Below, in pieces: positions 7,080 through 50,511 of a stretch of 63,385 nt of DNA (the first letter of the stretch is position 1; each line of letters begins with the position of its first letter). The notes below the pieces were generated by a model. It was not told the origin of the DNA and did not search any database. It saw only the letters and a list, made by a program, of their open reading frames with translations. This DNA is from Chalciporus piperatus (Eukaryota; Basidiomycota; Agaricomycetes; Boletales; Boletaceae). A program made the translations under genes and the position numbers. The stretch spans positions 1-63,385 of the forward strand of contig JBBPTG010000145.1 of NCBI GenBank assembly GCA_038093975.1, in the 5' to 3' direction.

Positions 7080-7085
7080 GGTATG
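7080..7085. repeat. Left 6-bp target site duplication (GGTATG)
   Basis: GGTATG immediately precedes the left terminal inverted repeat of the 7.45-kb element. The same six bases follow the right terminal repeat at 14,540-14,545. Confidence 0.9.
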
Positions 7086-7196
7086 TATGGAAAGCCGGAC
7101 AACCGTGCTCTTTCGGATCACAAAATCTGTCACGTGGACTTACGAATTAGGATATATGTATGAGCAGACCTCGGACACCTGTACTGAGAATTTCTC
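7086..7196 (+). repeat. Left terminal inverted repeat of the 7.45-kb element
   Basis: 111 bp, beginning TATGGAAAGCCGGACAACCG. It matches the reverse complement of 14,428-14,539 with one C/T difference and one extra C on the right side. Confidence 0.93.
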
Positions 7197-7368
7197 AGTT
7201 ATAGTTTTTATTAATGTAGGCGCTCGGCAATCGTGAGTTATAGTTGCAAGATATTAGAACCGGATACAACGAAGTACAAAACATGGGATGACAATGATGA
7301 CAACGATGGTAGTTAGCGGCTTAGTTCAAGGAGCAAGAAGTATCAAGATGAAGGGAAGTCGAGGCCTA

Positions 7369-10300
7369 CTACATTGCCACATCACCAGTGACTCCCTGGG
7401 TGGCTTTGACCGCACTGCTCTCGAATTCAGCAAGTTTGAATCCCGGCCACTTGCAATACCTGTTGCAAACATGTTGGTTCTCGAACTCCGTCACTCCCCG
7501 TTCCAAGTTTCCCTCACAGAAAATATTGGCGCCTTCGCCGACGGAGCTATATAACAATGAACTTGTTAGTTTGACATGGTGAAGATACCGACAGGCACTC
7601 ACGGATGAGTCAGAATCTGTGGATCTGTCAGAAGAGAGGTGCTGCCTAATGATCATGGAGTTAGTAATATGTAAGAAAGACGACTGTATTAACATTACCT
7701 TGATAGTCTGAAATATATGCCAAGCGACTGGTCTTCAGATACTGAACGTGCTGCGTGAAGGCCAAGAACTCGGCCACATTATAACCGGGCTGGTCAGGTT
7801 GTAGGAGGGGGAGACATCTTCCGTTGTGGATGAACTTGACGAAAGATTCAGGGTCTGGGATCAACTCTTCGACGAGGTAAGCGATGTGAGAGTTTGCCTT
7901 GCGGCTGGCTGATTTGGGCCCACCACCACCTGAAGTGGTGGGATAGGTGACAGCAAGGCCGGCATCGACAAAGCGTAAGCGGGGAATGTTGAAGCTCGGT
8001 GGTTGGGTGCTCGTAGCAAGTGCGCGGTCAATGAAGGCGTAAGTCATGCTCAATAGGGCCTTTGCCCAGTACAGCACGTTTGCCTCACGAAAAACCTTGT
8101 TGAGCTCATCAGCAATCAAGTAGCGGGGAAATGGTGGTTTGGCCTCTGGATTTTGGCTCCGGATGTATGGTCGCTTTGCCACAACGGTCTGGCAAGGTTG
8201 CGAGCCAAGGCCAGAAGGGCGAAGAGATGAAAGGATGAGTTGCGCAGGTTGGGCCGTTTTGAAAGCGCCTACCCCAATGAGTGCCTTAGCGTTCAGATCG
8301 ACTCTGATTTGACCAGGTAATAGGTTCGATGATGTCATGTCAAACGAGCGATGTTCGGGTTTCACGATGTCCGCGAAAGGCACAGTGGGGATTGGATGAA
8401 AATCGATTAGGTGAGTGGTCTGTTTCAAGACTTGAACTACTATCAGCAATCTCACGACAGCTAACTCAAGAAATCACTTACTTTCATTCACATCTAGCAC
8501 TGCACCACCCCCAGATTTCAAAGCTTCTTTAATATCCTTCTGATTTGGGGAAGGAACATCAAGGGGAGGAGCTGACCGCTTCGAAGGCGGCGACTTGGTT
8601 GTGATGCTCGATACACTTGCTGAGTGTTGATGCGAGCGCTTAGACGACAGTAAATTGATAGGTACAGCCTAGTTAATCATTAGTAAGTCCTACTTAATGA
8701 GCGCGTGAGTCATTACCTTAGAGATGTTGTTGGTAAGTGAACGGTCTGACTGTTCTGGAAAAAAGAGCTGGTTAGAAGTAGATTTGGGTGTAAGGCCGAG
8801 GTCGGGCTCTGGGGAGGCTTCACGATCCTGGATAGAAGGTCCTGACGTGCGAAAGGATGGACCAGGAGAAGGCGAGCGCGTACGGAAGGACAGCCCAGGG
8901 GCAGGCGAGTGTGTACGGAAGGATGGACCAGGAGAAGGTGAACGTGTATGGAAGGACAGTCCAGGGGTACGCGAGCGTGTACGAATGGATGGACCAGGGC
9001 TAGGCGAGCGTAGACGTGAGGTGGGCTCATGTGCGATGTTGCTCTGAGTCAGTGGTTCCTCCTTCAAGGCTTCGTACTCTAACCATTGAGCTTGCGGAAC
9101 AATGACATTGAGAGAGCAAATCCGGGTCTTGAAAACTGGTCCCTTTGCGCCCTTCCGGTTGCTCTGATGGAGGCAACTGTTGTAAAAGTAAGGGAGAGTG
9201 GGTTCAGAATACTTGGCGAGGTCCACCCATGCTTCGTCGCGCACAATAAATTCCTCAGTTCGCCAAGAAAACTGGGGGCAGAAGGAACGAATGCACGGAA
9301 TGATGGTGTTGAGGGCGAGGGCCCTGAGCCTCGGCGCGGTCAGACGAGCATCAACATCCTTGACCCCTTCGCATATGTTCTATGATTTGCCTCAGCATCA
9401 TTAACGATATAAGTTACTGTCCCTTTCTGTATGTAGGAAACCGCGCGGGAGGTGTGACACGTTGCCACAGTCAGAGCGCTAGCAACCTGGCGACTTCGGT
9501 GTGTGATGCTCCAGCTGATTAGCAACAGGCATTGTGAGCCCGACCACCTCGGTGGCTTCGCATTGGGATTTCGACTCCGATCAAATTTCTATCGTTTACC
9601 TGGACTGCTACCCGGTACATGCTGGTCAAGAGTTTCGCACCTACATACTTCAAGAGTTCCCCCATATTATCCTTTGTTTCGTGCCCGCTGGCTGTAAGTG
9701 CCCAACAAGCTGTATTTTAAACATCAGGTTACAATCTTTCACAGGCACAGGTATTTTCCAACCAGCTGATGTTGGACTGAACCGAGTCATCAAGCACCAC
9801 CTGAAGCAGCACCAAATGGAATTCCTCATCGAGTCACACCAAACTCAGATCGATGATGGACTCACACCTGAGCAAGTCAAGTTCTCAACCTCACTTCCAG
9901 TGCTACGTGATGCATCAGTTGCTGGAATTGTTGGAGCATACAAGTTTATGACAGGACTGTTTGGTCGGGAACTTGTTGAAAAGGTTTGTTTCGTGTTATT
10001 TCCCTGCACGCAGGCTGGGCTAACATTTCTTGTAGTCCTGGGAACGGTGCTTGGTCAAAGAGTGGAACCTTTCCGCGGAATGTCTGACCAGCAAGAAGTC
10101 ACAAAATGTGCTGAATCAGTCCGCGAGGAGATAGAGAACCGCATGGGGATTGTGCATGGGCTTGAGGAATGCCTGACAGAGGACCAGCTTGATGCTGAGG
10201 TAGGAGATGACAATGCTGATGTACCTTCCAGTGCAGTCATTGAAGATGCTTTCGGCCTCGATGCAGTTGGGCTTCCGGGGGTGGATACTGTCTCACATGT

Positions 10301-11270
10301 TGAAAGCACAGCAAAGGGTCCGGCAGAGCAATTAGTGGCTGCGGGAGATGACGAAGATATCTGGCCATCGTGTAATCTACTTAGAACAAATACCATCTTG
10401 ACAACAGTTCCTTCTAGCAACCTCAGCCTTGTGACCAGTGACCGGGGCCAGTGATAGCAACACAACCGCCCCCATGTGACGTGTGACGGTTTCCTACATA
10501 CAGAAAGGGACAGTATGTGGGCACTTACACCAAATGAAGTACCACGCAAGCGACCTCGCTTACCACTTTCATGTAAGGCACCAATCGACAACGTAATTGT
10601 TTCTGCAGGCAGGAAGGCGTAATTACGACGCGCCATCTGGTCATGCACGAGGGGATACAGCAAGTGGTTGACATTATATCCCATAGCGTTCGATGGAATA
10701 GCTGCGCGTGGATTATGGGGGACCACTGGTTGATCGTCAGGTGGTTGCCACGCAGCCGAGGGAACTCTAACATCAGGACGTCGGCTCCGTTCTGCAACAG
10801 GTGGAGGTGGTGGCGGCATAGCAAGGGCGTCACGAGAGGGATCCGCTAGCTCTCGGTTGATTGGAACAATTGGTGGTGGATCAACGGTTCCTTCAACAAC
10901 AGTGAGCAGATAGTACTGAGAGTAAAGGTGCTATTACCTCGAGAGTAAGCAGCATTTATGGAACGTTGCACGGCATCCGCGTGAGGAGCAAGGGCATCTA
11001 GGAAATAACTTGAATAAGTGATTGGACGAAGGGTTGAAGTCAAGTGTGATTACCTCGAGTGAATGTAATGGTGCCAGATTGACCTTGATAGCGGCGGTAG
11101 CACGAAGCACAAACATGTCGTCCAGACTTGCCGTTCTTCCTGCCAACGTAAACATACGGCTGACCCTTGCGCACAACAGCCTGACAGGACGTGCACTGAC
11201 AGACGCTGTCCCGTTCAGCCACTGGATCTCTGGTAAATTCAGAGACGAGGACCGGGTCGAAATTTGGCAT
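7369..11270 (-). CDS. Alpha-kinase (atypical Ser/Thr kinase), transposon cargo
   Basis: Eight exons join in consistent phase: complement(7369-7546, 7603-7645, 7699-8439, 8482-8668, 8717-9379, 10529-10890, 10938-10997, 11054-11270), giving 816 aa from ATG 11,270. The N-terminus has two CxxC pairs (CTSC, CASC), probably a zinc ribbon. A Pro-rich stretch follows, then SP-rich tandem repeats (RSPSPGPSFRT type, about residues 325-395). The C-terminal 280 residues are an alpha-kinase domain: GVGAFKTA, VVAKRP, EELIP, FTQHVQY, ISDYQG, LLTDPQI and a terminal HVCNRYCKW that fits the structural zinc site. Alpha-kinases phosphorylate Ser/Thr, often in helical targets; substrates here are unknown. Intron 9380-10,528 is 1,149 nt because it holds a nested transposon; without it the intron would be 50 nt. 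The gene lies inside the terminal repeats of the 7.45-kb element, so it is cargo. Confidence 0.9.
8860..9030 (-). repeat. Tandem repeats coding SPSPGP-type units in the alpha-kinase
   Basis: Alternating 11-12 codon units (RSPSPGPSFRT, HSPAPGLSFRT, RSRTPGLSFHT) are visible both in DNA and protein. They form a low-complexity, proline-directed-phosphosite-like linker between the N-terminal part and the kinase domain. Confidence 0.8.
9417..10513 (+). mobile_element. Nested 1,097-bp Tc1/mariner-pogo type element, non-autonomous
   Basis: Perfect 27-bp inverted ends (9417-9443, starting CTGTCCCTTTCTGTATGTAG, and 10,487-10,513) are flanked by TA at 9415-9416 and 10,514-10,515. TA duplication is the hallmark of the Tc1/mariner superfamily, including pogo/Fot elements. 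The interior codes only for the C-terminal part of a DDE_1-like transposase, so the copy is internally deleted and would need a helper. It inserted in a 50-nt intron of the alpha-kinase gene; both original splice sites remain (GTAAGT at 10,528, TAG at 9380). Confidence 0.92.
9534..10454 (+). pseudogene. DDE_1-type transposase C-terminal fragment
   Basis: After removing an intron with GTAAGT near 9694 and a CAG acceptor near 9744, the reading is VYLDCYPVHAGQEFRTYILQ, then FVPAGCTGIFQPADVG, RVIKHHLKQHQ, TSLPVLRDASVAG and YKFMTGLFGRELVEK. A second intron (about 9985-10,035) leads to SWERCLVKEWNLSAECL and a stop. LDCYPVH and FQPADVG are conserved parts of pogo/CENP-B-like DDE endonucleases. The N-terminal DNA-binding domain and the first catalytic Asp are missing, so it cannot work alone. 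The long open frame read straight through the introns is not the likely product. Confidence 0.75.
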
Positions 11271-12334
11271 CGGAGGGCAAAATAGCGAGGGTGGGTGTAG
11301 TCAGTGATGGAAATCGTAGCGGGAGGGCCCTTAAGTACCTTGCATGACTGCAAAGATGGCCACCAACGCTCAGCAAAAATGTAGAATATCCAAACTTGAA
11401 GAGTCGTTGATAGACATGAGGATGGCGCTGATAAACACGAAGACGACGTTGAGGGCAATGAAACACCTTGAAACCACCCATCGTGGGACCTTCAAACATC
11501 TCAGAATTCGGGCGGCCGCAGAGTGAAAAACATAAGGAAGAGGGTTACCTTGAATTGTGATGCAATGCGCTCGATCCAAGTTTGCAGGCTGCAAAGTCAT
11601 TCTATCAGTGGAACATTCAAGGAATACAATGGACTGACTCACTGAAGTGGAAGGTTGTCCACCAGAGTCAGACACCTTCGAGAGCTGCAGGCAAAACAAG
11701 GAAGACATGAAGAGACTCTGAACCTGAAGGTTAAGAGGATGCACGGTCAGTCATGGCACCTCATGTCAGGAAACTTACGTCAAAGTGAAATGGGAAAGTC
11801 CCGCAGTCCGGAACTTGATGAAGCGCAGCCAAGAAGTGAAGCGAAGTGGACTCAGCATCACAATCGGAAACTTGAATGCACCAGTAAGGGGCTTCAAGTT
11901 TTGAGGAAGCCAAATGTGTCCCCGGCGAGGAGGTGCGTCTTCTGATAAGCCATGCCTGTTCAGTCGTCAGGTAGGACACTTACTGTTCCAGATTTATGGC
12001 TGTCGCTGGCATGCCAAGACAGCACCGTGACCGGTTGACCCTTATGGCACAGTGATGCTGTCATGCTTGAAGCGAGAGCACGCTTAGTATGGCACGCTGC
12101 CACAGGGTCTGCTCAGTACATGGAATGTTCCCAAACGGCAACCGTTGAACCAACCTGCAGTACGCAGCACGTCTCTTCCATTCTGGTGAACACCCACTGG
12201 CAGAGGCCGCGGCCTGAGATCACCTACCAACAAGGCATGTCTGCCCCAAAGATCTGAGCTGGCACGGCCACCAACCTGCCTCATTACGCCCTATAACTAG
12301 CCATTCCAACAGTGCCGGCCAACTCAACTTGAAG
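11271..12334. promoter_or_regulatory. Intergenic region between two divergent transposon genes
   Basis: The 1,064 bp between the alpha-kinase start and the integrase start must hold both promoters. Short open frames on the minus strand around 11,370-11,740 could be 5' untranslated or missed kinase exons, but none joins convincingly. No TATA box is obvious. Confidence 0.45.
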
Positions 12335-14320
12335 ATGTCTGACCTTGTCTCAATCCCTTCGTCTCACCCACTCGTTTCATTTCTACTCAAATGCCTAACC
12401 AGTGGAAGCCAACTCGTGAGTCAAGTCGTCACTCTGGCCTGGGACTCGCATTCAAATATTGATACTTCTTCAGCACCTCTTTCGCAGATCGAGCCTCTCA
12501 TCAGGCGTTTATGGGCTGCTCGGCTTACCGACCGACAAATTGTCGAAGAGCTCCGCAAGAGTATTGACACAGATGTGTATGGCATTGGGTAGGGCGACTT
12601 CACTTTTCACCTGACCCCCGCACTTGTTACTGACGCTGTTCCATCAACAGCCTCACAAAATTCACAGAGATCCGCAAACAACTCGGCTTGCAACGGACTC
12701 GTCAGCAACGCCATACGACAGACTCTATCCGAGCTGTTATGATGGAATTGCGTGCTATCTATCCCCATGCTGGGGCACGTGAAATGGTGAGCCTGTTGTT
12801 CCATGAACATGGCATGAGCGTTGCAAGGTAAGTATGCCCTACGATTCCATCTGACTTATTTAACCAATCCTTCATTCAGAAGTGTTGTTCAGGAATACTT
12901 CCATACCTATGAACCAGAACTTGTTCGTCAGCGCAAAGCCAATCGACTCCGGCGTCGTCAGTTCTGGGCTGCTGGTGTCAACGACATCTGGACACTTGAT
13001 CAACATGACAAGTGGCTCCGTTTCGGCTTGGCGCTTCACTGTGCGATTGAGCCATTTACTGGTCGTATCTTATGGATGAAGATATGGCATTCTAACCGCA
13101 ACCCCAAGTTAATCTTGTCGTATTACCTTGAAACCATTGAACAACTTGGATGTAAGTACCCGCTCTCCATTCCTGTTCAATTGTAGTGTTCAATCCAGTT
13201 AGACATGCCCCTTGTCACCCAAAGCGATCCGGGAACAGAGAACTTTGGCGTCGCAAACGCTCAAACTATGCTCCGCCAAATGCACGACCCATCCTTGATC
13301 GGGTTCGTCCAACATCGCTGGATGCGGACGAAGAAGAACGTTATGCCTGAAATTGCCTGGTCACAGTTACGACGACGATTCTCACCCGGTTTCGAAGCCA
13401 TTCTGCAGCAAGGAGTGGACAAAGGATGGTACGACCGTGACAATACACTTCAGCTGTGAGTACCACATCTCTCCAACCCGTAGTGAAGCTGAACGATCTA
13501 CCAGCATGGTCTTTCGATGGTTGTTTATTCCTTGGCTTCAGGCCGAACTCGACCGCTATCAGTATCGTGTCAACAACACATTAAAGCGACATGATCGCAA
13601 CAAGGTATGTCAGGTTTACATTACCCTTTGCATTGCTGCCGACTGCGCTTATCAAGATCCTTCCTCACGGTATGCCCGATCTCATCTTCCAGTGCCCTGG
13701 TGATTATGGCGCCCTCAACTTTAAAGTATATTACCTTTTTAATATTCGTTCAGCGACTAATATATAAACAGGTCACTGTCGAACGCACCACAATTGATGA
13801 AGTCCGTGATCTCTACATCAATGCTAACCACCCTGTGTTCGACCTTGTTCCTCAACCACTCAACGCCTTCTTTGAAGATTGTTATGACAATCTAGGTCGT
13901 CCTGCCGTCGACCGTGCCTCAGTATGGAACATATATCTTGCTATTCTCCGCACGATTCGAAATTACACCGAGATTCCCCAAGTCCTAGCATCTCTCAGCT
14001 CCTCGGGGGCGGCTGATGAAGACTTTGAACTGCTGGGGGGGCAACAAGACCTGCCTGACAATGAGGACGAGTACATGGGTGGTGTCGGCAATGGTTGTGG
14101 TCTTCGTACGTTCATATTTCCTACCATGACTTTTGCCTCGAGTTCTAACATAGTTTTTCCAGAGACAGAACATCACCGTGCATTGGATGAGTTAGATATT
14201 GAGTGCGAGCGTGTGGAAGCCGAGAATGGTGATACTGACCTAATGGACATTCCTCCACTCGTTATCGCCTCATTCTCAGACGATGAGGCTTCAGACGAGG
14301 ATGGTGATCTCGATGCATGA
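12335..14320 (+). CDS. Integrase-core (rve/DDE) transposase, IS3EU-like
   Basis: Eight exons join without frame errors: 12335-12588, 12651-12827, 12880-13151, 13203-13455, 13505-13604, 13657-13725, 13772-14105, 14163-14320, giving 538 aa. The N-terminal part (RLWAARLTDRQIVEELRK, LTKFTEIRKQLGL) looks helical and DNA-binding. The core has IWTLDQHDKW (first Asp), VTQSDPGTENFG (second Asp) and KKNVMPEIAW (candidate Glu about 41 residues on), as in retroviral-type integrases. QYRVNNTLKRHDRNK and an acidic C-terminus (SDDEASDEDGD) follow. Proteins of this type are common in Agaricomycetes, usually listed only as integrase core proteins. Its place inside matching terminal repeats makes it the likely mobilising enzyme of the 7.45-kb element. 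Confidence 0.9.
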
Positions 14321-14427
14321 CTTTTATTTCATCTATTTCATGCACTCTCTTTTTGTTGACCCGTTGTTATGTTTTTTTTGGATGACCATCATGATCTCGA
14401 ACTGACATTACAGTCAAATATATAATT

Positions 14428-14539
14428 GAGAAATTCTCAGTACAGGTGTCCGAGGGTCTGCTCATACATATATCCTAATTCGTAAGTCCACGTGACAAAT
14501 TTTGTGATCCGAAAGAGCACGGTTGTCCGGCTTTCCATA
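14428..14539 (-). repeat. Right terminal inverted repeat of the 7.45-kb element
   Basis: Reverse complement of 7086-7196 apart from two small differences; the outer end reads GGCTTTCCATA on the plus strand. Confidence 0.93.
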
Positions 14540-14545
14540 GGTATG
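14540..14545. repeat. Right 6-bp target site duplication (GGTATG)
   Basis: Exact copy of 7080-7085, directly outside the right terminal repeat. Confidence 0.9.
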
Positions 14546-20937: not shown

Positions 20938-21430
20938 CGAGGCCAGTGAGAAAACCCATCGACACCGAAAACGCTGCCCGTCAAAGGCTTACGCCAAAAA
21001 AACTAGCGGCCGCATCCTGCATGGCTCCGAGTCGCAGCAGCTCCGACCCTCAGCCTCCGCCTCTCCAACAATGCTTTCCTCACTGTCACTTCCCTGACGC
21101 TCCATGGATTGCACAGATGACGCCGTGGACGAGATACGCTCCAGTGAAGTCGTCTTGGAATGACTCCTTTCTTGCGAGCTAACGTGGTGCCAGTGGGTGT
21201 CGAAGAAGACATGCTCCCAGAGGAGAGCCCGCTTCTCTCAGAGAGTCGCGTACTGTGCATTGAGATGTTGACATTGAGCTGGTCGCAGAGCCCGGCGCAG
21301 TGCGTTCAGATCGGATCGTGCTTCGCCCAGACTAACGGGATATTGTAGTCATCGTCTCCCCAGAACTGAATCTTGCCATCTGCGTATTTACGCAAGTTTG
21401 GCTCGAGCGGAGTCGAGTTGAGGGGCGCAT
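20938..21430 (-). pseudogene. Partial duplicate of the membrane-protein gene at 22.9-25.7 kb
   Basis: This stretch is a direct, diverged copy of the 3' coding end at about 22,840-23,580. Shared peptides include STPTGTTLARK, GVIPRR, REVTVRKALLERRR and LRKY. The copy has an internal deletion joining LRKY to DGKIQ, small indels and frame changes, so it cannot encode the original tail. The PD...ExK-family gene at 21,526 lies between the two copies. Confidence 0.8.
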
Positions 21431-22374: not shown

Positions 22375-22879
22375 TCTGTGAGTCGTTGTGTCATGCTTTT
22401 CACTCGGCTAAGCCTACTGATGGTAATGGTACCCAAGATTCCTTGTTTCTGATTCTCGTTCTGGGTGGAGAGTTGTAGTTGCGTCACGGTGTAGACACAA
22501 TGATGTTGTACAATAAAAAATCATATGCGGTTCCGTCAGACCACTGTAGTGTCCAGCTTGCTCGAGGGGGAAATAACTATTCACCTGCCAGCGAAGACAA
22601 CGAGATAATACAGTGACAAGAGTGCTAGTGACCTCCCAGCTGAGATCATGCATCTACGCTCGAACTCTCGCGATGACCGACTCCGAGATACAAGCGTGTC
22701 GTTCCTGGCAATTCGCTCAGTCTCCGATGAACTCTACGATTCAAACCCACATTTCCTGCAGTGCCCATGCTTGGAAGTGATGACCAAAGTAAGAACGAGT
22801 GAATTATAGGAGTAGGTAGTACATCATTAAGCAGAGTGTGGTACAACCATCGACATCGAAAGCACTGCCCGTCAAAGGC
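22375..22879. other. Intergenic spacer
   Basis: About 500 bp between convergent genes. No exon, hairpin or repeat I can support. Confidence 0.4.
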
Positions 22880-25740
22880 TCACACGAAAAAACTAGCGGA
22901 GTCACGACTACGTAGGCTCTCCCCGCGTCCTGCATGGCTCGCAGCAGCTCCAACCCTCCTCCGCCTCTCCAACAATGCTTTTCTCACCGTCACTTCCCTC
23001 GTCGATTGCCCACTCTCCATGGACTGCGCGGATGACGCCGTTGACGAAATACGCTCAAGTGCCCGAGGTCGTCTTGGAATGACACCTCTCTTGCGAGCTA
23101 AGGTGGTGCCAGTGGGCGTAGAGGAAGACTGTAGGGACACGCTTCCAGAGGAGAGCCCGCTTCGCCCAGAGTGTCGCGTACTGTGCCTTGATATATTCGA
23201 CATCGAGCTGGTCGCAGAGCCCGCCGGAGTGCGTCCAGATCGGATCGTGCTTCGCCCAGACTGACGGGTGGTGGTGCGTGAGACGCTATACGTAGACCCA
23301 GTCATCGTATCCCCAGACCTCGTCGTGCTGCTGCTGCCAGACTGAATCTTGCCATCCTCCGAGTCCATTTTATCGTCCTTTGATCGCAACAGCGAGAACA
23401 CGCTCCCGGAGTCGGATGGGAGATTCAGTTCCACCATCAGACGAGACGGGGTGAGCGACATCGGGGTCGACGTCCCGTACGGCCGATCGAGTTGAAGTTG
23501 AGCTGCGGGGCTCGGTCCCAAACCCGACCTAGACGATATCGAGTCCGCATACCCGTATTTACGCAAGTTGGCTCGGGCGACTGCAGAGTCGGTCGAATAT
23601 ATGCTTCCCGTTTCGGTTCGTAGGGAAGATAATCTGCGTGTGCTGCCTATGTTGCTGAGAGGAAGATCGAGATTGGATATTTTTGCAGGTGGGGGCTTGG
23701 CTATCTCGACGGGTGCTTCGTTGTTGCTCGGAACCGTCGATGGAGCACGTGAGCCGGGATGAGAGAAGTATTCACTGGGAAGCGACGAGGGGCTCTCGTA
23801 GACGACTCCGGTTCTCGTGAACGTAGTAGCGTCAACTGCGCTGACCAGGTTTACTGGGGCAAGAGAGGAACCGACATCCAAGCGCTCAGGACGGGAAGGT
23901 GAAGTAGGTGAATGTCGTGACGCAACTCTCTGAGGGGCAGGGGTGAATCTCGAACTACCGGGATTGCCGCCACTCCCTGGCTGAGGATCGAGACCAGAAG
24001 GTTGGTTGCCAGCAACCGCGCCTACTGCATTCCAGAAAGTTGACTTGACCGTGTCTGTCCAACCTTGTGGGTTCGATGAAGGGATAGGAGGCAGTGCGTT
24101 CGATGCCGCAGGTTTTTTGGAAGTTGGAGCCTCCGCCTCAGGAGGCCGCCTTGTACGTCGAAACGCAGGGACGTCACTCATCCTTCTACCCCATGACATC
24201 GTCGCAGGTCCAGGAGGTTCCAAAGGCATATCGGCTTCCGGAGGACGTCGATCTCTTTGATTCGCTCCAACATCTTGTAGCACGTTCTCCCCAGAAAGAG
24301 AAGTACGTTCAGCATACACGTCCGCGGAAGTGGGTGAGGTCCCAGAATGATCTTGCAACCCTGGCCGATTCGCCATGCCTTCGTCCCCACTAGTGACATC
24401 TCCCGGGACTCTGTTCGCGACGCGGAGCCTGCCGAGCGTTCGCGTGCTCTCTTGGACCGATAACCCAGTTTCTAGGCGCTCTGCGCCAGGACGTGAGTTA
24501 GGGTTGGTTACTTGGGACGATGGGGCGTTACGTGCGCGCAGGGAGTATGGATTTTGGAGGAGAGAGGTGTATGGACCCGCGTCTAGACCAAGTCCAGAAG
24601 GGCGAACACCTTCCTGCGCGTGATCGTCCCCGTGCGTGGTTGTCAATGGGAACAAATTGGCCGTGCTCCGATGGACGATCGACTCTGGAAGGTAATATGG
24701 AGAAGTCGACGTCTCTATTTTCAAGTTATCTCCTTTATCCTCCTCGTTAGGGTCAGTATGAACGATCATGATTGGACTGTCGGTGTCCAGGTCGTTACGA
24801 TTGAGCCAAGGATCCTCTAGCTCCAATCTCCGTCTTCGACCGCGCGACCTTATAAACCATGCGATCAACGCTGAGACGCATGCGACGAAAGCGAGCGAGG
24901 CGAGGACGATAGCGAGATAGAACGGTGCACCGACCCCGTGGTCTGCTGGAGACGACTCTGATGTCGGGGTTGGAGTTGGATAATTGACGGTAGGGATGGA
25001 TGGAAGGCTAGTGTCCGTGTCTGTTGCGTTGGAAGACGCCGGGTTAGTCGAGGAAGATGCGCCTAATGTCGATGACGCCGGCGCAGACGTGGTGAACGAG
25101 GTACTGTTGACAGCGTGGTATGGGATGGGGGATACGAACGGTGACGAAGTAGGAGGTGGAGTAGGCCCGCCTGTATTGCTAGTGATGACGACCTGCGTAC
25201 GCTCGTGGTTCAGGGGAAGCGTCATAGATGGAAGTGATACTCACAGGAATCGCTGTGGGTGTTAAGGGCGCGAGTGAACTGTCGAAACCAAGCAGTGAAA
25301 CCTGTCCATTCGATCCAAAGACGAGCGTCAACGCTCGGTTATGATGTTTGGCAGGAGTAGCATCAGGTAAGGAGTGCGGTTGACTTGGGGTCATCATCCA
25401 GTGAAATGACTTCAGAGATCCAAATCATGGGTGCGCACCAGGCGCGGAGGAGGGAGTGAATGTGACCGGAGCTGCAAAGAGTGGGTCCAAGGAAAGCGTG
25501 TCGGGCAGCATACCAGACGGTCTGCAAGCCGGGACCCGCTCGCCGTGCTGAGACTATTTGGTCGTTGTGAACCAGACCAACGGGTTGATCTGAGCCTCAG
25601 TTGAGGCTTGTACATAGACACCGTAGTCTGTAGCCTTTCACTGCGGCTAACTTGTATAGTCTTCGGAGTCTGCTCTTGTAACACAACTTGGACATCGAGC
25701 TGACTATTGAACGTACCCGAGTCGGGTGGATCCACCCTCG
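22880..25740 (-). CDS. Single-pass membrane protein with Ser/Thr-rich ectodomain, unknown function
   Basis: The main exon (22,880 to about 25,210) encodes about 775 aa. A short Ser/Thr/Pro-rich extracellular stretch (SSTLGASSSTNPASSNATDT) precedes one membrane helix (FYLAIVLASLAFVACVSALI), then a basic stop-transfer RSRGRRRR and a long, disordered cytosolic tail rich in Ser, Arg and Pro. An upstream exon about 25,250-25,400 (LTLVFGSNGQVSLLGFDSSL) joins through GTGAGT and a CAG acceptor near 25,200, and more N-terminal exons probably lie to about 25,740. The start codon is not fixed. The layout recalls fungal wall-stress or Mid2-like surface sensors, but I see no diagnostic domain, so that is only a guess. 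A broken copy of its 3' end lies at 20.9-21.4 kb. Confidence 0.7.
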
Positions 25741-34699: not shown

Positions 34700-35144
34700 A
34701 GAGCGGGGGTTAAGATAATGTTAAAGCTTGGGTAATTGCATTTTTCAAGCAGACTGTGGCATCCGTCTGTTTGAACTGCCACGCTACGCTAACTCATCAC
34801 CATAATGCCTGGCCGTATAGTCCATGCAAGTGAACGTGAACATGTGTTCGGTAGCGCAGGAATCTGAGTCAAACCTAAGTCAAACTGGCACCCGATGATG
34901 ATGGTCCCGACAAACAGGTCACGGAGAGAGACCACCGTATGCGATAGGCTATCGCAGCGCACGAAGATTATGGAGACAGGTAAGCACCAGCAAATCGGGC
35001 TCACTTTGACTACGCTCTTGCGCGTGAGCAGGGAAGTCGACGCAGTGACATGGAATGCAATCGCTGTCGAGAGAGATAGCAAGAGTCTCAAGAGACACAT
35101 CATCTTGAACTCAAGACAGGGTTGGCGCTGGTGTCTTGTAGTGA

Positions 35145-37235
35145 GGACATGCGTCCGACTCTTTCCTGACTCGAATGTCATAATTCACAATATGTCTATC
35201 AAGTAAAGTTCCTCCACGTTTACAAGGAAAGGTAAGTTACGAAACAACGTTCACCAGTCAGGTTATGAAAACACGAACTCAGAGCTGATGCGTAAATGGA
35301 AAGATTGGGGTTCCTTTGTCGATCCATTAGGCGCTAGTTGTCAATTCATTCATATGCACAACGCGGAGGCGTTCGCTTGGCGGAACAAGCTGCTCTTCCG
35401 AGATATGGGGAACTCCCCCACGGAGAACGCCAACTCGCTTCATGGCCAACAGCTATAACCACAATAAGCCAATCTGGCCTCAGGATTAAAGTGAATGGTA
35501 ATCGGACACTGACATTGTGAGCAGCATGACTGTGGTCGTATATCCCTCCAAAGAACGCCGAGGTTGCATCCTTCCCGATATGCTTCATTAAATGCTGACG
35601 TCCTCCGGGGTGATCACCGAGGAAATCTTCGACATCATGAATGAACCCGGCGATGCAGATAAGAGCACGCGATTGAGCCTGGGACTGATCTGTTTGCAGA
35701 TTAGCTCAGGTTCCCCGCGACGATGACATCACTTACAATCAGCCCAATTTATCACGGGCAGACCACCGCTCTGGCTGGGCCAAGCCAAAGCTTCCTGTCT
35801 ATGGCGAAGTTGCTTCAGCTCCATTGTGAGCTCCCCCTTGCGAATCTCGTTGTCGGAAAATGTCTGGCGTAATGTCAAAACAATTCTAGTGGGAACTTGA
35901 AGTAGCCTCACCTTTAGATGGCTAGCCAGACCGAGCTGTTCGCATGTCCAGATGAGCCACTTTGTGGGATCATATTGATACCACCGTATCGCGTTGCGAT
36001 AGTCCATGGGAAATTGGTGATGGAAATTGTGGTAGCCTTCTCCGTGGGTTAGGAGAGCAGTCAATAGATGATCTCTCGGCGAATGCTTGTCATCGAAAGG
36101 CGTGTCGCCAATCCAATGGGCAAGGGAGTTAACACAAGAAGCGGACTGGATCGTAAATGTCAGTCTTCTCTTCTATTTCAGTGATTGAAACTGACCTGAT
36201 GCACGAAAAAGAGTCGTAATAGTCCTGCATAGACAAAACCGCCTTTCCAGTCTCCCCAGCCTAATCCAGCTATGGCAGACGGAAAGATGACAGCGGTGAT
36301 CAGGACCAGCCAGGGATAGTAACGAAATTGCCATGTCACAATACGACTGTTTTTGAGGTCGTCGATATCGACTCTTCCATGTTTGCATCTTGGTTTGAAG
36401 ATGACCCAACCGATGTGCGTCCAGAACAATCCAAGGCGTGCGTTGTAAGGATCGAGGGCTGTATCGGTATATCTATGATGTGCGCGGTGCAAGCGTGCCC
36501 ACCAGATTATAGGGCCCATGACACATGCGGTACCTAGGAAGGCGAGAATGATCTCGAGCGTGGTTGTTGCATTGTACGACCGATGACCCCACAGCCTATG
36601 GTACCCCGCTGTGATACCTGTGATACATCTTTCAGAATCTGAACGATTTCTTCGAGTGACGCGACCTACCCATGCCAGAAATGAGATAATACATTACCGA
36701 CCAAACCATCGTTTCGCGACGGAGAGGGGTGAAGAAAGCGCCGATGGTGGCAAGCGGCGGCATGATTATGATCAGGGTAAAACGTACCCACTCTGCTTCC
36801 CTCCACCAGTTCGACCATGTAACCGGTGGGCGTACTTTTGCGTTCTGAAGGGCATAGGAAGCGTAACTTTCCAATGTCTCGCTGTCTGCTTCATTGCGAG
36901 AGATGTGAACAGGTGATTCACCCATGACGCCCGCAATCACAGGGCTGTCCGGGCTGGCCAGTGGTAATGGGGCAAGACAAAACACCTTTCTCCCAAGTCT
37001 GCTTAAGTTCACCCGAAGTCCACGTTCTATTCTGGCCCTGTTAGCGTGAAGATGAACGGAAAATATCAGCGGACGATTTGGACATGTACGACCCACCGCA
37101 GTTGCACCGTATGTCGGAACGGCTCGATTCAGATGCGACCCGGCTCGTTCTACATAGTACGCAAATTAATGAAACGGGGGTCCGACGGGAGAACCATACC
37201 TGCAACCCCAGGGGTCAGTTTCACGGAAGCTAGGG
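35145..37235 (-). repeat. Left arm of an inverted duplication of about 2 kb
   Basis: The minus strand of this segment matches 48,118-50,150 almost base for base across the whole desaturase gene, its introns and short flanks. Similarity fades near 35,145 (about 50,150 on the other side) and near 37,235 (about 48,118), where flanking sequences differ. Confidence 0.9.
35327..36925 (-). CDS. Acyl-CoA Delta9-desaturase with C-terminal cytochrome b5 domain, copy A
   Basis: Ole1-type membrane desaturase that puts the Delta9 double bond into saturated acyl-CoA in the ER. From ATG 36,925 (MGESPVHISRNEADS) six exons mirror copy C, giving about 446 aa. The three histidine boxes are present: HRLWGH, HRAHH and HNFHH, with membrane segments before and after (LIIIMPPLATIGAFF, AVIFPSAIAGLG). 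The C-terminal cytochrome b5 domain keeps its haem-binding HPGG and a later SHAAHN histidine, so the enzyme carries its own electron donor. It differs from copy C by only two residues that I saw (Ala for Ser in SYALQ, Gly for Asp in QSGGLP). It points towards the neighbouring hotdog-protein gene. Confidence 0.92.
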
Positions 37236-47417: not shown

Positions 47418-48372
47418 CTCCGGAGTCGCTGGGGATGGAAGGTGAAGCATTTTTTCTTGTATTTCTAGATGTTGTGCACAACCTGGATACGCGAGTAAAT
47501 TGAGCTTGGTTTCTGTATATACTAACTGCTTGGCGCCGTGGTTCGAACTCGTTCGGTTGCTGCCTGAGTCTACGATTGCTCCTGCGGATTCACTATGTTG
47601 TTGCATGCCACATGGACCAAACGCAGACGCTCAAGAGCGTGTATCGGCGAGGCCAGTCACCACTGTTGAAGGTTGCACATGCGAGGCAACAACGAACCGA
47701 GTCAGTCACTCTGGCCAACTAGTAATTCATCCATGATCCATCTCTGGGATGGTTTTCTCTGGAAGCTTACAGGGAAGGGTCGAGCGTCTATTCTTTGAAT
47801 GGAAAGACAGTTGGTCTGGGTAGTACTAGAAGTTGGGGAGACTAACTTCCTCTAACTTAACTTCTTTTGTCCAGACGGCGGTGCAGCCCGGCTCAATTCC
47901 TCACAAACAGTGCATGGCCTGAACTTCTGATCTGACAACATAATTAAACGTCGAGCTTAACAAGGCTAGCCCCAGACTAGTCCTTGAGCACTAGCTGTCG
48001 TACGTGACGTATGATCTCGCCAAAACAGTCATCGAACCGAAATCAAACCTTCAAGATCATTCACCTTCAACAGCCTTCAACGCGTTTTTGATTGGCACAC
48101 ACAGCCACAATTCTCCCCCCCAGCTTCCGTAAAACTGACCCTTGGCGTTGCAGTTATGGTTCTCCCGTCCGACCGCCTTTTCATTAATTTGCGTATGTAG
48201 AACGAGCCGGGTCGCATTTGAATCGAGTCGTTCCGACTTTACGGTACGAACGGTGGTTTACATATGTCCAAACTGTCCGCTGATATTTTCCCTTCATCAT
48301 CTTGACGCGAACGAGTATTGTCTTCCCCCATTCCCACTGGCCAGCCCGGACAGCCCTGTGATTGCGGGCGTC
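47418..48372. other. Intergenic region, desaturase C upstream
   Basis: The last 250 bp (from about 48,118) belongs to the inverted duplication and resembles the upstream region of desaturase A. The part before that is unique and has no exon. Confidence 0.5.
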
Positions 48373-50150
48373 ATGGGTGAATCACCTGTTCACATCTCTC
48401 GCAATGAAGCAGACAGCGAGACATTGGAAAGTTACGCTTCCTATTCCCTTCAGAACGCAAAAGTACGCCCACCGGTTACATGGTCGAACTGGTGGAGGGA
48501 AGCAGAGTGGGTACGTTTTACCCTGATCATAATCATGCCGCCGCTTGCCACAATCGGCGCTTTCTTCACCCCTCTCCGTCGCGAAACGATGGTTTGGTCG
48601 GTAATGTATTATCTCATTTCTGGCATGGGTAGGTCGCGTCACTCGAAGAAATCGTTCAGATTCTGAAAGATGTATCACAGGTATCACAGCGGGGTACCAT
48701 AGGCTGTGGGGTCATCGGTCGTACAATGCAACAACCACGCTCGAGATCATTCTCGCCTTCCTAGGTACCGCATGTGTCATGGGCCCTATAATCTGGTGGG
48801 CACGCTTGCACCGCGCACATCATAGATATACCGATACAGCCCTCGATCCTTACAACGCACGCCTTGGATTGTTCTGGACGCACATCGGTTGGGTCATCTT
48901 CAAACCAAGATGCAAACATGGAAGAGTCGATATCGACGACCTCAAAAACAGTCGTATTGTGACATGGCAATTTCGTTACTATCCCTGGCTGGTCCTGATC
49001 ACCGCTGTCATCTTTCCGTCTGCCATAGCTGGATTAGGCTGGGGAGACTGGAAAGGCGGTTTTGTCTATGCAGGACTATTACGACTCTTTTTCGTGCATC
49101 AGGTCAGTTTCAATCACTGAAATAGAAGAGAAGACTGACATTTACGATCCAGTCCGCTTCTTGTGTTAACTCCCTTGCCCATTGGATTGGCGACACGCCT
49201 TTCGATGACAAGCATTCGCCGAGAGATCATCTATTGACTGCTCTCCTAACCCACGGAGAAGGCTACCACAATTTCCATCACCAATTTCCCATGGACTATC
49301 GCAACGCGATACGGTGGTATCAATATGATCCCACAAAGTGGCTCATCTGGACATGCGAACAGCTCGGTCTGGCTAGCCATCTAAAGGTGAGGCTACTTCA
49401 AGTTCCCACTAGAATTGTTTTGACATTACGCCAGACATTTTCCGACAACGAGATTCGCAAGGGGGAGCTCACAATGGAGCTGAAGCAACTTCGCCATAGA
49501 CAGGAAGCTTTGGCTTGGCCCAGCCAGAGTGATGGTCTGCCCGTGATAAATTGGGCTGATTGTAAGTGATGTCATCGTCGCGGGGAACCTGAGCTAATCT
49601 GCAAACAGATCAGTCCCAGGCTCAATCGCGTGCTCTTATCTGCATCGCCGGGTTCATTCATGATGTCGAAGATTTCCTCGGAGATCACCCCGGAGGACGT
49701 CAGCATTTAATGAAGCATATCGGGAAGGATGCAACCTCAGCGTTCTTTGGAGGGATATACGACCACAGTCATGCTGCTCACAATGTCAGTGTCCGATTAC
49801 CATTCACTTTAATCTTGATTGGCTTATTGTGGTTATAGCTGTTGGCCATGAAGCGAGTTGGCGTTCTCCGTGGGGGAGTTCCCCATATCTCGGAAGAGCA
49901 GCTTGTTCCGCCAAGCCAACGCCTCCGCGTTGTGCATATGAACGAATTGACAACTAGCGCCTAATGGATCGACAAAGCAACCCCGATCTTTCCATTTACG
50001 CATCAGCTCTGAGTTCGTGTTTCCATAACCTGACTGGCGAACGTTGTTTTGTAACTTACCTTTCCTTGTAAACATGGAGGAACTTTCCTTGATAGACATA
50101 TTGTGGGTTATGACATTCGAGTCCGCAAAGAGTCGGATGCATGTCGGCGA
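48118..50150 (+). repeat. Right arm of the inverted duplication of about 2 kb
   Basis: Matches the minus strand of 35,145-37,235 with few substitutions and small indels in introns and flanks. Confidence 0.9.
48373..49964 (+). CDS. Acyl-CoA Delta9-desaturase with C-terminal cytochrome b5 domain, copy C
   Basis: Six exons in phase: 48373-48628, 48681-49102, 49153-49386, 49435-49561, 49609-49784, 49839-49964, giving 446 aa. Histidine boxes HRLWGH, HRAHH and HNFHH, and the cytochrome b5 motifs GDHPGG and SHAAHN, are complete, so it should be an active ER desaturase like copy A. It ends LRVVHMNELTTSA. The coding sequence is nearly the same as copy A and lies in the opposite direction. Its 5' upstream region differs from that of A beyond about 250 bp, so the two could be regulated differently. 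Confidence 0.94.
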
Positions 50151-50511
50151 CACGAGGCCTTTGCGCCATTACATGGCGCAAGACGTTGCGGTCAATGTCG
50201 CCCCATATCCCAGTGGAGGGTGAGCGTTTGAACGACCGTCTTTGTCCCGACTCTTGAGCCTGCCTACGAGAAACAAGAAAGATAGCAACAATACCACAAC
50301 TTGAAGTTATTGGTACAATCGTGAGCACCTTACATGCCCGTCGAAAGCATTGCAGAGTCTCTAGTTCCCCATGAGATAGTACGTATGCCTCCAAGTCTCT
50401 ATTGCCTCTTTAATCAGGCGTAATGGGCGTTAGTCGGCACTGGGAACGTAACATCAGGGCAATAAGTTGAATAACAACACTCGACATCGTGACACGACAG
50501 GGGTAAATAAC
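49965..50511. other. Intergenic spacer
   Basis: First about 185 bp belong to the inverted duplication. A minus-strand open frame (50,056-50,394) includes one hydrophobic stretch (VLTIVPITSSCGIVAIFLVS) but has no recognisable family and overlaps the duplication edge, so I do not call it a gene. Confidence 0.35.

What the first reader, a model, noticed from the sequence alone, without database searches (positions are those of the whole stretch)
7086..14539. A transposon that carries an alpha-kinase: intact integrase, intact kinase, matching ends and target duplication
Seen in the sequence: inverted ends of about 111 bp with two differences, a perfect 6-bp flanking duplication, and two multi-exon genes that both splice into complete proteins (538 and 816 aa). 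Known: integrase-core proteins and expanded alpha-kinase families are each common in mushroom genomes, usually listed separately. Inference: they travel together, and transposition may explain alpha-kinase expansion. A signalling kinase as a fixed passenger of a cut-and-paste element is unusual; it could be a regulator of transposition, a host-manipulating factor or plain cargo.
Basis: partly seen in the sequence, partly recalled or inferred. Interest (0 to 1): 0.92.

Follow-up and report, generated by a model that had tools for sequence, protein, structure and literature searches.

The report
Mushroom transposon carrying a signalling kinase
A jumping DNA element in a mushroom genome carries, beside the enzyme that moves it, a protein kinase gene that it seems to have kept for a long time; the pairing was mentioned once before in related elements, but why the element keeps a kinase is not known.

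Summary
A 1.1-kb TA-inserting element sits in kinase intron 3.

Ends TATGG..CCATA, 6-bp duplication and integrase core match the IS3EU superfamily. A 2025 paper (PMC12730594) already states that its TET-bearing IS3EU families carry transposase and alpha-kinase in opposite orientations. So this is a new, TET-less member of a known kind.

New here: all three assembled copies carry both genes without stops (one copy inferred across two contigs); the kinase was found nowhere else; in six other species locus tags put the two genes side by side, and their distances agree (11 pairs, Mantel r 0.91). Active-site residues are conserved. The kinase looks like a long-term resident, probably acting on the transposase or on host silencing (inferred).

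Against: similar terminal tips without either gene occur; some deeper tree groupings conflict; selection on the kinase between copies is significant against synonymous, not non-coding, sites.

The parts
7080..7085 (.). Target-site duplication GGTATG, left copy
   Evidence: Sequence; identical to 14540-14545
7086..7203 (+). Left terminal inverted repeat, starts TATGGAAAGCCGG
   Evidence: Alignment to right end, 2 substitutions and 1 indel over 118 bases; further copies in the genome
7369..11270 (-). Alpha-kinase gene, 8 exons (11270-11054, 10997-10938, 10890-10529, 9379-8717, 8668-8482, 8430-7699, 7645-7603, 7546-7369), 813 aa: zinc-finger-like N-terminus, middle domain, C-terminal alpha-kinase domain
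9417..10513 (.). Nested TA-inserting element (29-bp inverted ends, TA at 9415-9416 and 10514-10515) in kinase intron 3
   Evidence: Inverted repeat, second copy C21:109224-110351 at 94%, empty site with single TA in copy C414
8847..9011 (-). 33-bp tandem repeats in kinase exon 4, coding an 11-residue S/P/R-rich repeat
11271..12390 (.). About 1.1 kb between the two divergent genes: presumed bidirectional promoter; no TET/JBP gene recognised
   Evidence: Gene models; 9 open frames of 57-126 aa gave no Pfam family above its cut-off; promoter role inferred
12391..14320 (+). Transposase gene, 9 exons (12391-12415, 12474-12588, 12651-12827, 12880-13151, 13203-13455, 13505-13604, 13657-13725, 13772-14105, 14163-14320), 500 aa, integrase core with D146, D205, E246
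14421..14539 (-). Right terminal inverted repeat, ends CCGGCTTTCCATA
14540..14545 (.). Target-site duplication GGTATG, right copy

Best explanation
It is a cut-and-paste DNA transposon of the IS3EU superfamily in a Boletales-like mushroom. The 500-aa transposase has a helical N-terminal part and a retroviral-integrase-type catalytic core; it presumably binds the 118-bp ends, cuts the element out and joins it to new DNA with a 6-bp stagger. The second, divergently transcribed gene encodes an alpha-kinase that looks catalytically competent and is inherited together with the transposase over long times. Most likely (inferred) it is an accessory transposition protein: its zinc-finger-like N-terminus would bring it to element DNA, chromatin or the transposase, where it phosphorylates the transposase or a host silencing or repair factor and so promotes or times transposition. 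Shown: element anatomy, multiple copies, co-occurrence, broadly concordant divergence, conserved active sites. Inferred: activity of both enzymes, shared promoter, substrate and effect of the kinase.
Against: Kinase nonsynonymous differences between copies C145 and C414 (14 of 1,835 sites) are not significantly rarer than non-coding ones (27 of 2,263; p 0.21), and kinase synonymous sites differ more than non-coding ones (p 0.008), so the low ratio may overstate selection. Ten further places in the assembly carry the terminal tip (9 with at most 1 mismatch in 16 bases; C244 with 2 in 23) without a recognised kinase or transposase, so ends can exist without the kinase. Copy C414 has lost its right end and has a mutated donor in the last kinase intron. 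The two gene trees conflict in several deeper groupings, some with local support above 0.9: Tricholoma joins Mycena in the transposase tree (0.96) but the Suillus side in the kinase tree (0.93, on a very long branch), and one Pisolithus albus pair and the S. luteus/S. subluteus pair also shift. Within the 5 Suillus pairs of the strict set concordance is not significant (r 0.59, p 0.11). In P0096 the two domains lie on one strand, so the divergent arrangement is not universal. The residue where the consensus of relatives has the first Gly of the G.GN loop is Cys in the window protein and both copies. Nothing here tests kinase activity or a role in transposition.
Confidence: 0.6

Rival explanations
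1. Plain cargo: an ancestral element captured a host alpha-kinase gene, which now rides along and is kept because it benefits the fungus or by inertia, with no part in transposition.
For: Gene capture by fungal transposons is documented (TET/JBP in 11 transposon lineages, PMC12730594). Copy-level constraint on the kinase is not significant against non-coding sites.
Against: Cargo of no use to the element should decay or be swapped; instead the kinase diverges broadly in step with the transposase over 11 to 20 linked pairs, keeps its active site, and no stand-alone copy was found in this genome. The paper reports the same pairing in TET-bearing IS3EU families.
Confidence: 0.2
2. Anti-silencing or host-manipulating kinase: it phosphorylates host chromatin, RNA-silencing or DNA-repair factors to relieve silencing or favour integration, rather than acting on its own transposase.
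For: Some IS3EU elements of rusts and a truffle also carry TET dioxygenases, which that paper proposes to help escape methylation silencing, so these elements do recruit host-directed genes. The N-terminal four-Cys motif is present in 46-50 of 62 relatives, nearly all others being gapped there.
Against: No substrate, localisation or expression data. The element lacks a recognised TET gene. Long pairwise co-inheritance does not tell transposase-directed from host-directed action.
Confidence: 0.25
3. Chance neighbours: the ends enclose the two genes only by accident of insertion.
For: None found beyond the presence of other repeats in the genome.
Against: Three copies at different sites carry both genes in the same arrangement, two of them with different duplications, and related species show the pair.
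Confidence: 0.01

Closest known systems
TET-bearing IS3EU families of rust fungi and Tuber indicum (Kojima 2025, PMC12730594; passages found by term, including section 3.1.3, and the whole of section 4.1 seen)
   Same: 6-bp target duplications, TAYGG..CCRTA ends, inverted repeats over 30 bp, transposase and alpha-kinase genes in opposite orientations
IS3EU/GingerRoot superfamily in general (PMC10045372; passages seen)
   Same: TA..TA termini, 6-bp duplications, integrase-type DDE transposase
   Different: The word kinase does not occur in that paper's main text
Alpha-kinase family (TRPM7, myosin heavy chain kinase A, eEF2 kinase)
   Different: Encoded inside a transposon; zinc-finger-like N-terminus and an uncharacterised middle domain; Cys where the consensus has the first Gly of the G.GN loop

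Membership tests
IS3EU superfamily | 6-bp target-site duplications | tested here: met
   GGTATG for the window copy; TAATTG for copy C447/C41, inferred across two contigs. C414 cannot be tested, its right end is missing.
IS3EU superfamily | TA..TA termini, in fungi TAYGG..CCRTA, inverted repeats over 30 bp | tested here: met
   TATGG..CCATA, 118 bp; definition
IS3EU superfamily | Integrase-type DDE transposase | tested here: met
   PF24764 in the window protein and 31 of 31 relatives; D146, D205, E246; integrase-core fold of a homologue
IS3EU superfamily | Transposase groups with Repbase IS3EU transposases in a tree | not testable with these tools
IS3EU superfamily | No HHCC zinc motif upstream of the core | not tested
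   The model of P0108 shows a helical N-terminus; the motif was not searched for
Kinase-bearing IS3EU (as in PMC12730594) | Transposase and alpha-kinase in opposite orientations | tested here: met
   Gene models; text
TET-bearing IS3EU | TET/JBP gene between transposase and alpha-kinase | tested here: not met
   9 open frames of 57-126 aa between the genes, no Pfam family above its cut-off; a split or degenerate gene could be missed
Alpha-kinase (PF02816) | Domain match and catalytic and zinc residues | tested here: met
   43.6 bits against a cut-off of 21.3; residues; fold of the P0001 homologue
Alpha-kinase (PF02816) | Kinase activity | not testable with these tools
   Needs a biochemical assay

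The most novel reading that the evidence does not exclude
The alpha-kinase is an integral, conserved second enzyme of fungal IS3EU transposons, needed for or regulating transposition, and many of the alpha-kinase genes that inflate gene counts in mushrooms and rusts are transposon genes rather than host signalling kinases.
Probability: 0.45. Interest if true: 0.65.

Novelty: new member of a known kind. Interest (0 to 1): 0.45.

Why it matters
It gives a mobile, recently duplicated element with intact transposase and kinase frames in which the role of a transposon-borne protein kinase can be tested. It also suggests a simple explanation for the alpha-kinase expansion reported in rusts and for the many mushroom alpha-kinases found here: they may track IS3EU copy number. 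Annotators who read these proteins as host signalling kinases may be counting a transposon.

Tried and rejected
Genome-wide Pfam alpha-kinase search was void: it did not ring even on the window's own split gene, nor in the controls, so it says nothing about other alpha-kinases; searches with the window's gene replaced it, and distant alpha-kinases outside the element remain possible. A search for an allelic empty site with the 600-bp left flank found only the window itself. The profile search with 62 kinases was uninformative (4 proteins), probably because words came from low-complexity N-terminal parts. I looked for second ends of the other tip-bearing loci by TA plus duplication and by inverted match inside 1.5 kb (4.5 kb for C244) and in 3 kb more of C277; apart from weak or internal matches (an 11-base and a 28-base inverted match, one 16-base match with 4 mismatches) nothing convincing appeared, so whether these are non-autonomous elements or relics is open. 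The idea that the transposase start is lost in the other copies was dropped after the corrected model. The homologue search, genome search and distance comparison still used the first, 538-aa transposase model or part of it. A pogo-type label for the nested element rests on its TA duplication and a recalled sequence motif; Pfam gave no hit, so I call it only a TA-inserting element. The sequence profile of 31 transposases matched no solved structure at E up to 1, and Foldseek gave no match at E 0.001 or better; only the second look by VIA-align shows the integrase core. The host name is inferred from homologues (Chiua virens first), not established. Contig matches rest on equal contig lengths; on large contigs they show only a shared contig, not neighbourhood. 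One contig match (P0038, Pisolithus tinctorius) was overlooked when the pairs for one search were listed. What I say about print rests in an open-access library; Repbase entries were not seen. PMC4150398, which names alpha-kinase, was seen only in a listing; PMC5295586 only in one passage, a table that lists PF02816.
Full report
Observation. The window holds, at 7086-14539, an element with inverted ends that align over 118 bases with two substitutions and one indel, flanked by GGTATG on both sides. Inside are two genes on opposite strands, transcribed away from a 1.1-kb middle. The kinase gene (minus strand) has eight exons and codes for 813 aa.

Nested element. Kinase intron 3 holds a 1,097-bp insertion (9417-10513) with 29-bp inverted ends and a TA duplication. 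Copy C414 has the same intron without it and with a single TA, and a second copy lies at C21:109224-110351, 94% identical. The intron grows from 50 to 1,149 nt, which may hinder splicing in this copy; no expression data were available.

Copies. The genome (35.5 Mb, 484 contigs, unnamed) holds three recognised copies of the element. C145 is the window. C414:3296-9517 has a left end, kinase and transposase but lacks the right end beyond window position 14433. A third copy is split: C447:1624-4958 carries the left part with the kinase and C41:3618-6606 the right part with the transposase. The two pieces overlap by the 5-bp GTTAC duplication of an insertion whose visible ends read TG..CA, and their outer flanks are both TAATTG, as expected for one insertion. 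C447 also has an insertion in its left end with an 11-bp duplication. That C447 and C41 are one copy is an inference from these matches. Over the part shared by C145 (without the nested element) and C414, 6,139 aligned positions match and 69 do not, with 55 gap positions. The kinase exon is found at three places and the closely related transposase at three places, all within these copies; the other transposase matches (C206, C11/C142, C10) show only 25-28% identity.

Ends without the genes. A 16-base tip with at most one mismatch occurs 14 times (reversed control 0): 5 at the copies above and 9 elsewhere (C22, C52, C336, C204, C228, C291, C277, C16, C41:46162). C244 has a weaker one. C52/C336 and C228/C291 are near-identical pairs. 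tblastn with the two window proteins and 227 database proteins on 8 of these 10 loci found neither gene (about 1.5 kb inside the tip, more for C244); C16 and C41:46162 were not in that test, but the genome-wide searches list nothing there. No convincing second end was found. So related ends exist without recognised kinase or transposase; whether these are non-autonomous elements or relics is open.

Association elsewhere. Homologue searches returned 107 kinases and 461 integrases, of which the best 120 are listed. Pairs by locus tag on contigs of equal length: Chiua virens 7918/7919 and 6819/6818, Boletus reticuloceps 8963/8961, Melanogaster broomeanus 67057/67056, Suillus fuscotomentosus 1191263/1191262, S. 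luteus 15633/15632, S. lakei 1912656/1912657; the DNA itself was not seen. One Tricholoma furcatifolium protein carries both domains on one strand. By equal contig length, 19 of 107 kinases share a contig with a listed integrase, and the fused protein makes 20. This is a floor, because only cluster representatives and 120 of 461 integrases are shown; for the other 87 kinases linkage was not shown. Pairwise distances of kinase and transposase agree: Mantel r 0.910 (p 0.0001) for 11 pairs (the window, the 7 tag pairs, the fused protein and two pairs on contigs under 80 kb) and 0.895 (p 0.0001) for 20. Of the 19 contig matches, Pisolithus tinctorius P0038 was overlooked and not used. Within Suillus r is 0.79 (p 0.0001, 10 pairs) in the loose set but 0.59 (p 0.11, 5 pairs) in the strict one. 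Chiua virens has at least two lineages; one groups with the window, the other with Boletus reticuloceps, in both gene trees. Several deeper groupings differ between the trees, some with local support above 0.9 (Tricholoma with Mycena or with the Suillus side; one Pisolithus albus pair; the S. luteus/S. subluteus pair), so concordance is broad, not complete, and exchange of genes between elements is not excluded.

Selection. Between copies the nonsynonymous/synonymous ratio is 0.26-0.29 for the kinase and 0.16-0.29 for the transposase (three non-independent pairs each). Against non-coding sites of the element (C145 against C414) the kinase is not significantly constrained (14/1,835 against 27/2,263, p 0.21), while the transposase is (4/1,166, p 0.012); kinase synonymous sites differ more than non-coding ones (p 0.008). 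The firmer evidence for long-term constraint is the conservation between species.

Comparison with what is known. PMC12730594 (passages found by term and the whole of section 4.1) classifies elements with 6-bp duplications and TAYGG..CCRTA ends as IS3EU and states that all its TET-bearing IS3EU families have the TET gene between transposase and alpha-kinase genes, which lie in opposite orientations. PMC10045372 (passages) gives TA..TA termini and usually 6-bp duplications for IS3EU. The window element meets these, without a recognised TET gene. It is therefore filed as a new member of a known kind. The superfamily tree could not be tested. [quoted passage not shown] linking that expansion to IS3EU is my inference.

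Mechanism. Anatomy and relatives support a two-gene element in which a DDE transposase moves DNA with a 6-bp stagger. That the kinase takes part is inferred from co-inheritance and a conserved active site. Phosphorylation of the transposase or of host silencing and repair factors is the most economical reading; plain cargo is not excluded.

Noticed in passing
window 9417-10513: A 1.1-kb TA-inserting element with 29-bp inverted ends nested in kinase intron 3; one other copy found in the genome (C21:109224-110351, 94%).
   Followed up: yes
window 35123-36988 and 48310-50168: A long inverted duplication (1.5 kb at 99% plus 352 bp at 93%) about 11 kb apart; the open frames resemble a fatty-acid desaturase (recalled motif, no search made).
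   Followed up: partly
window 20956-21339 and 22847-23268: Direct repeat blocks about 1.9 kb apart, 87-95% identical, looks like a tandem gene duplication.
   Followed up: no
L013 (C414), L015/L016 (C447), L017 (C41): The other copies of the element are themselves hit: one insertion with an 11-bp duplication in the left end of C447, one with a 5-bp GTTAC duplication and TG..CA ends between C447 and C41; C414 is cut in its right end.
   Followed up: partly
C22, C52/C336, C204, C228/C291, C277, C16, C41:46162, C244 of G000: Further sequences share the 16-23-bp terminal tip; where examined they do not share the rest of the inverted repeat (C244 partly does) and show neither kinase nor transposase; they may be related non-autonomous families or relics.
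   Followed up: partly
P0096 (Tricholoma furcatifolium H0H92_005087): A predicted protein with integrase core followed by alpha-kinase on the same strand, probably two neighbouring transposon genes merged by the gene caller; orientation differs from the window element.
   Followed up: partly
window 8847-9011: 33-bp repeats in kinase exon 4 code for an 11-residue S/P/R-rich array of about five units.
   Followed up: no
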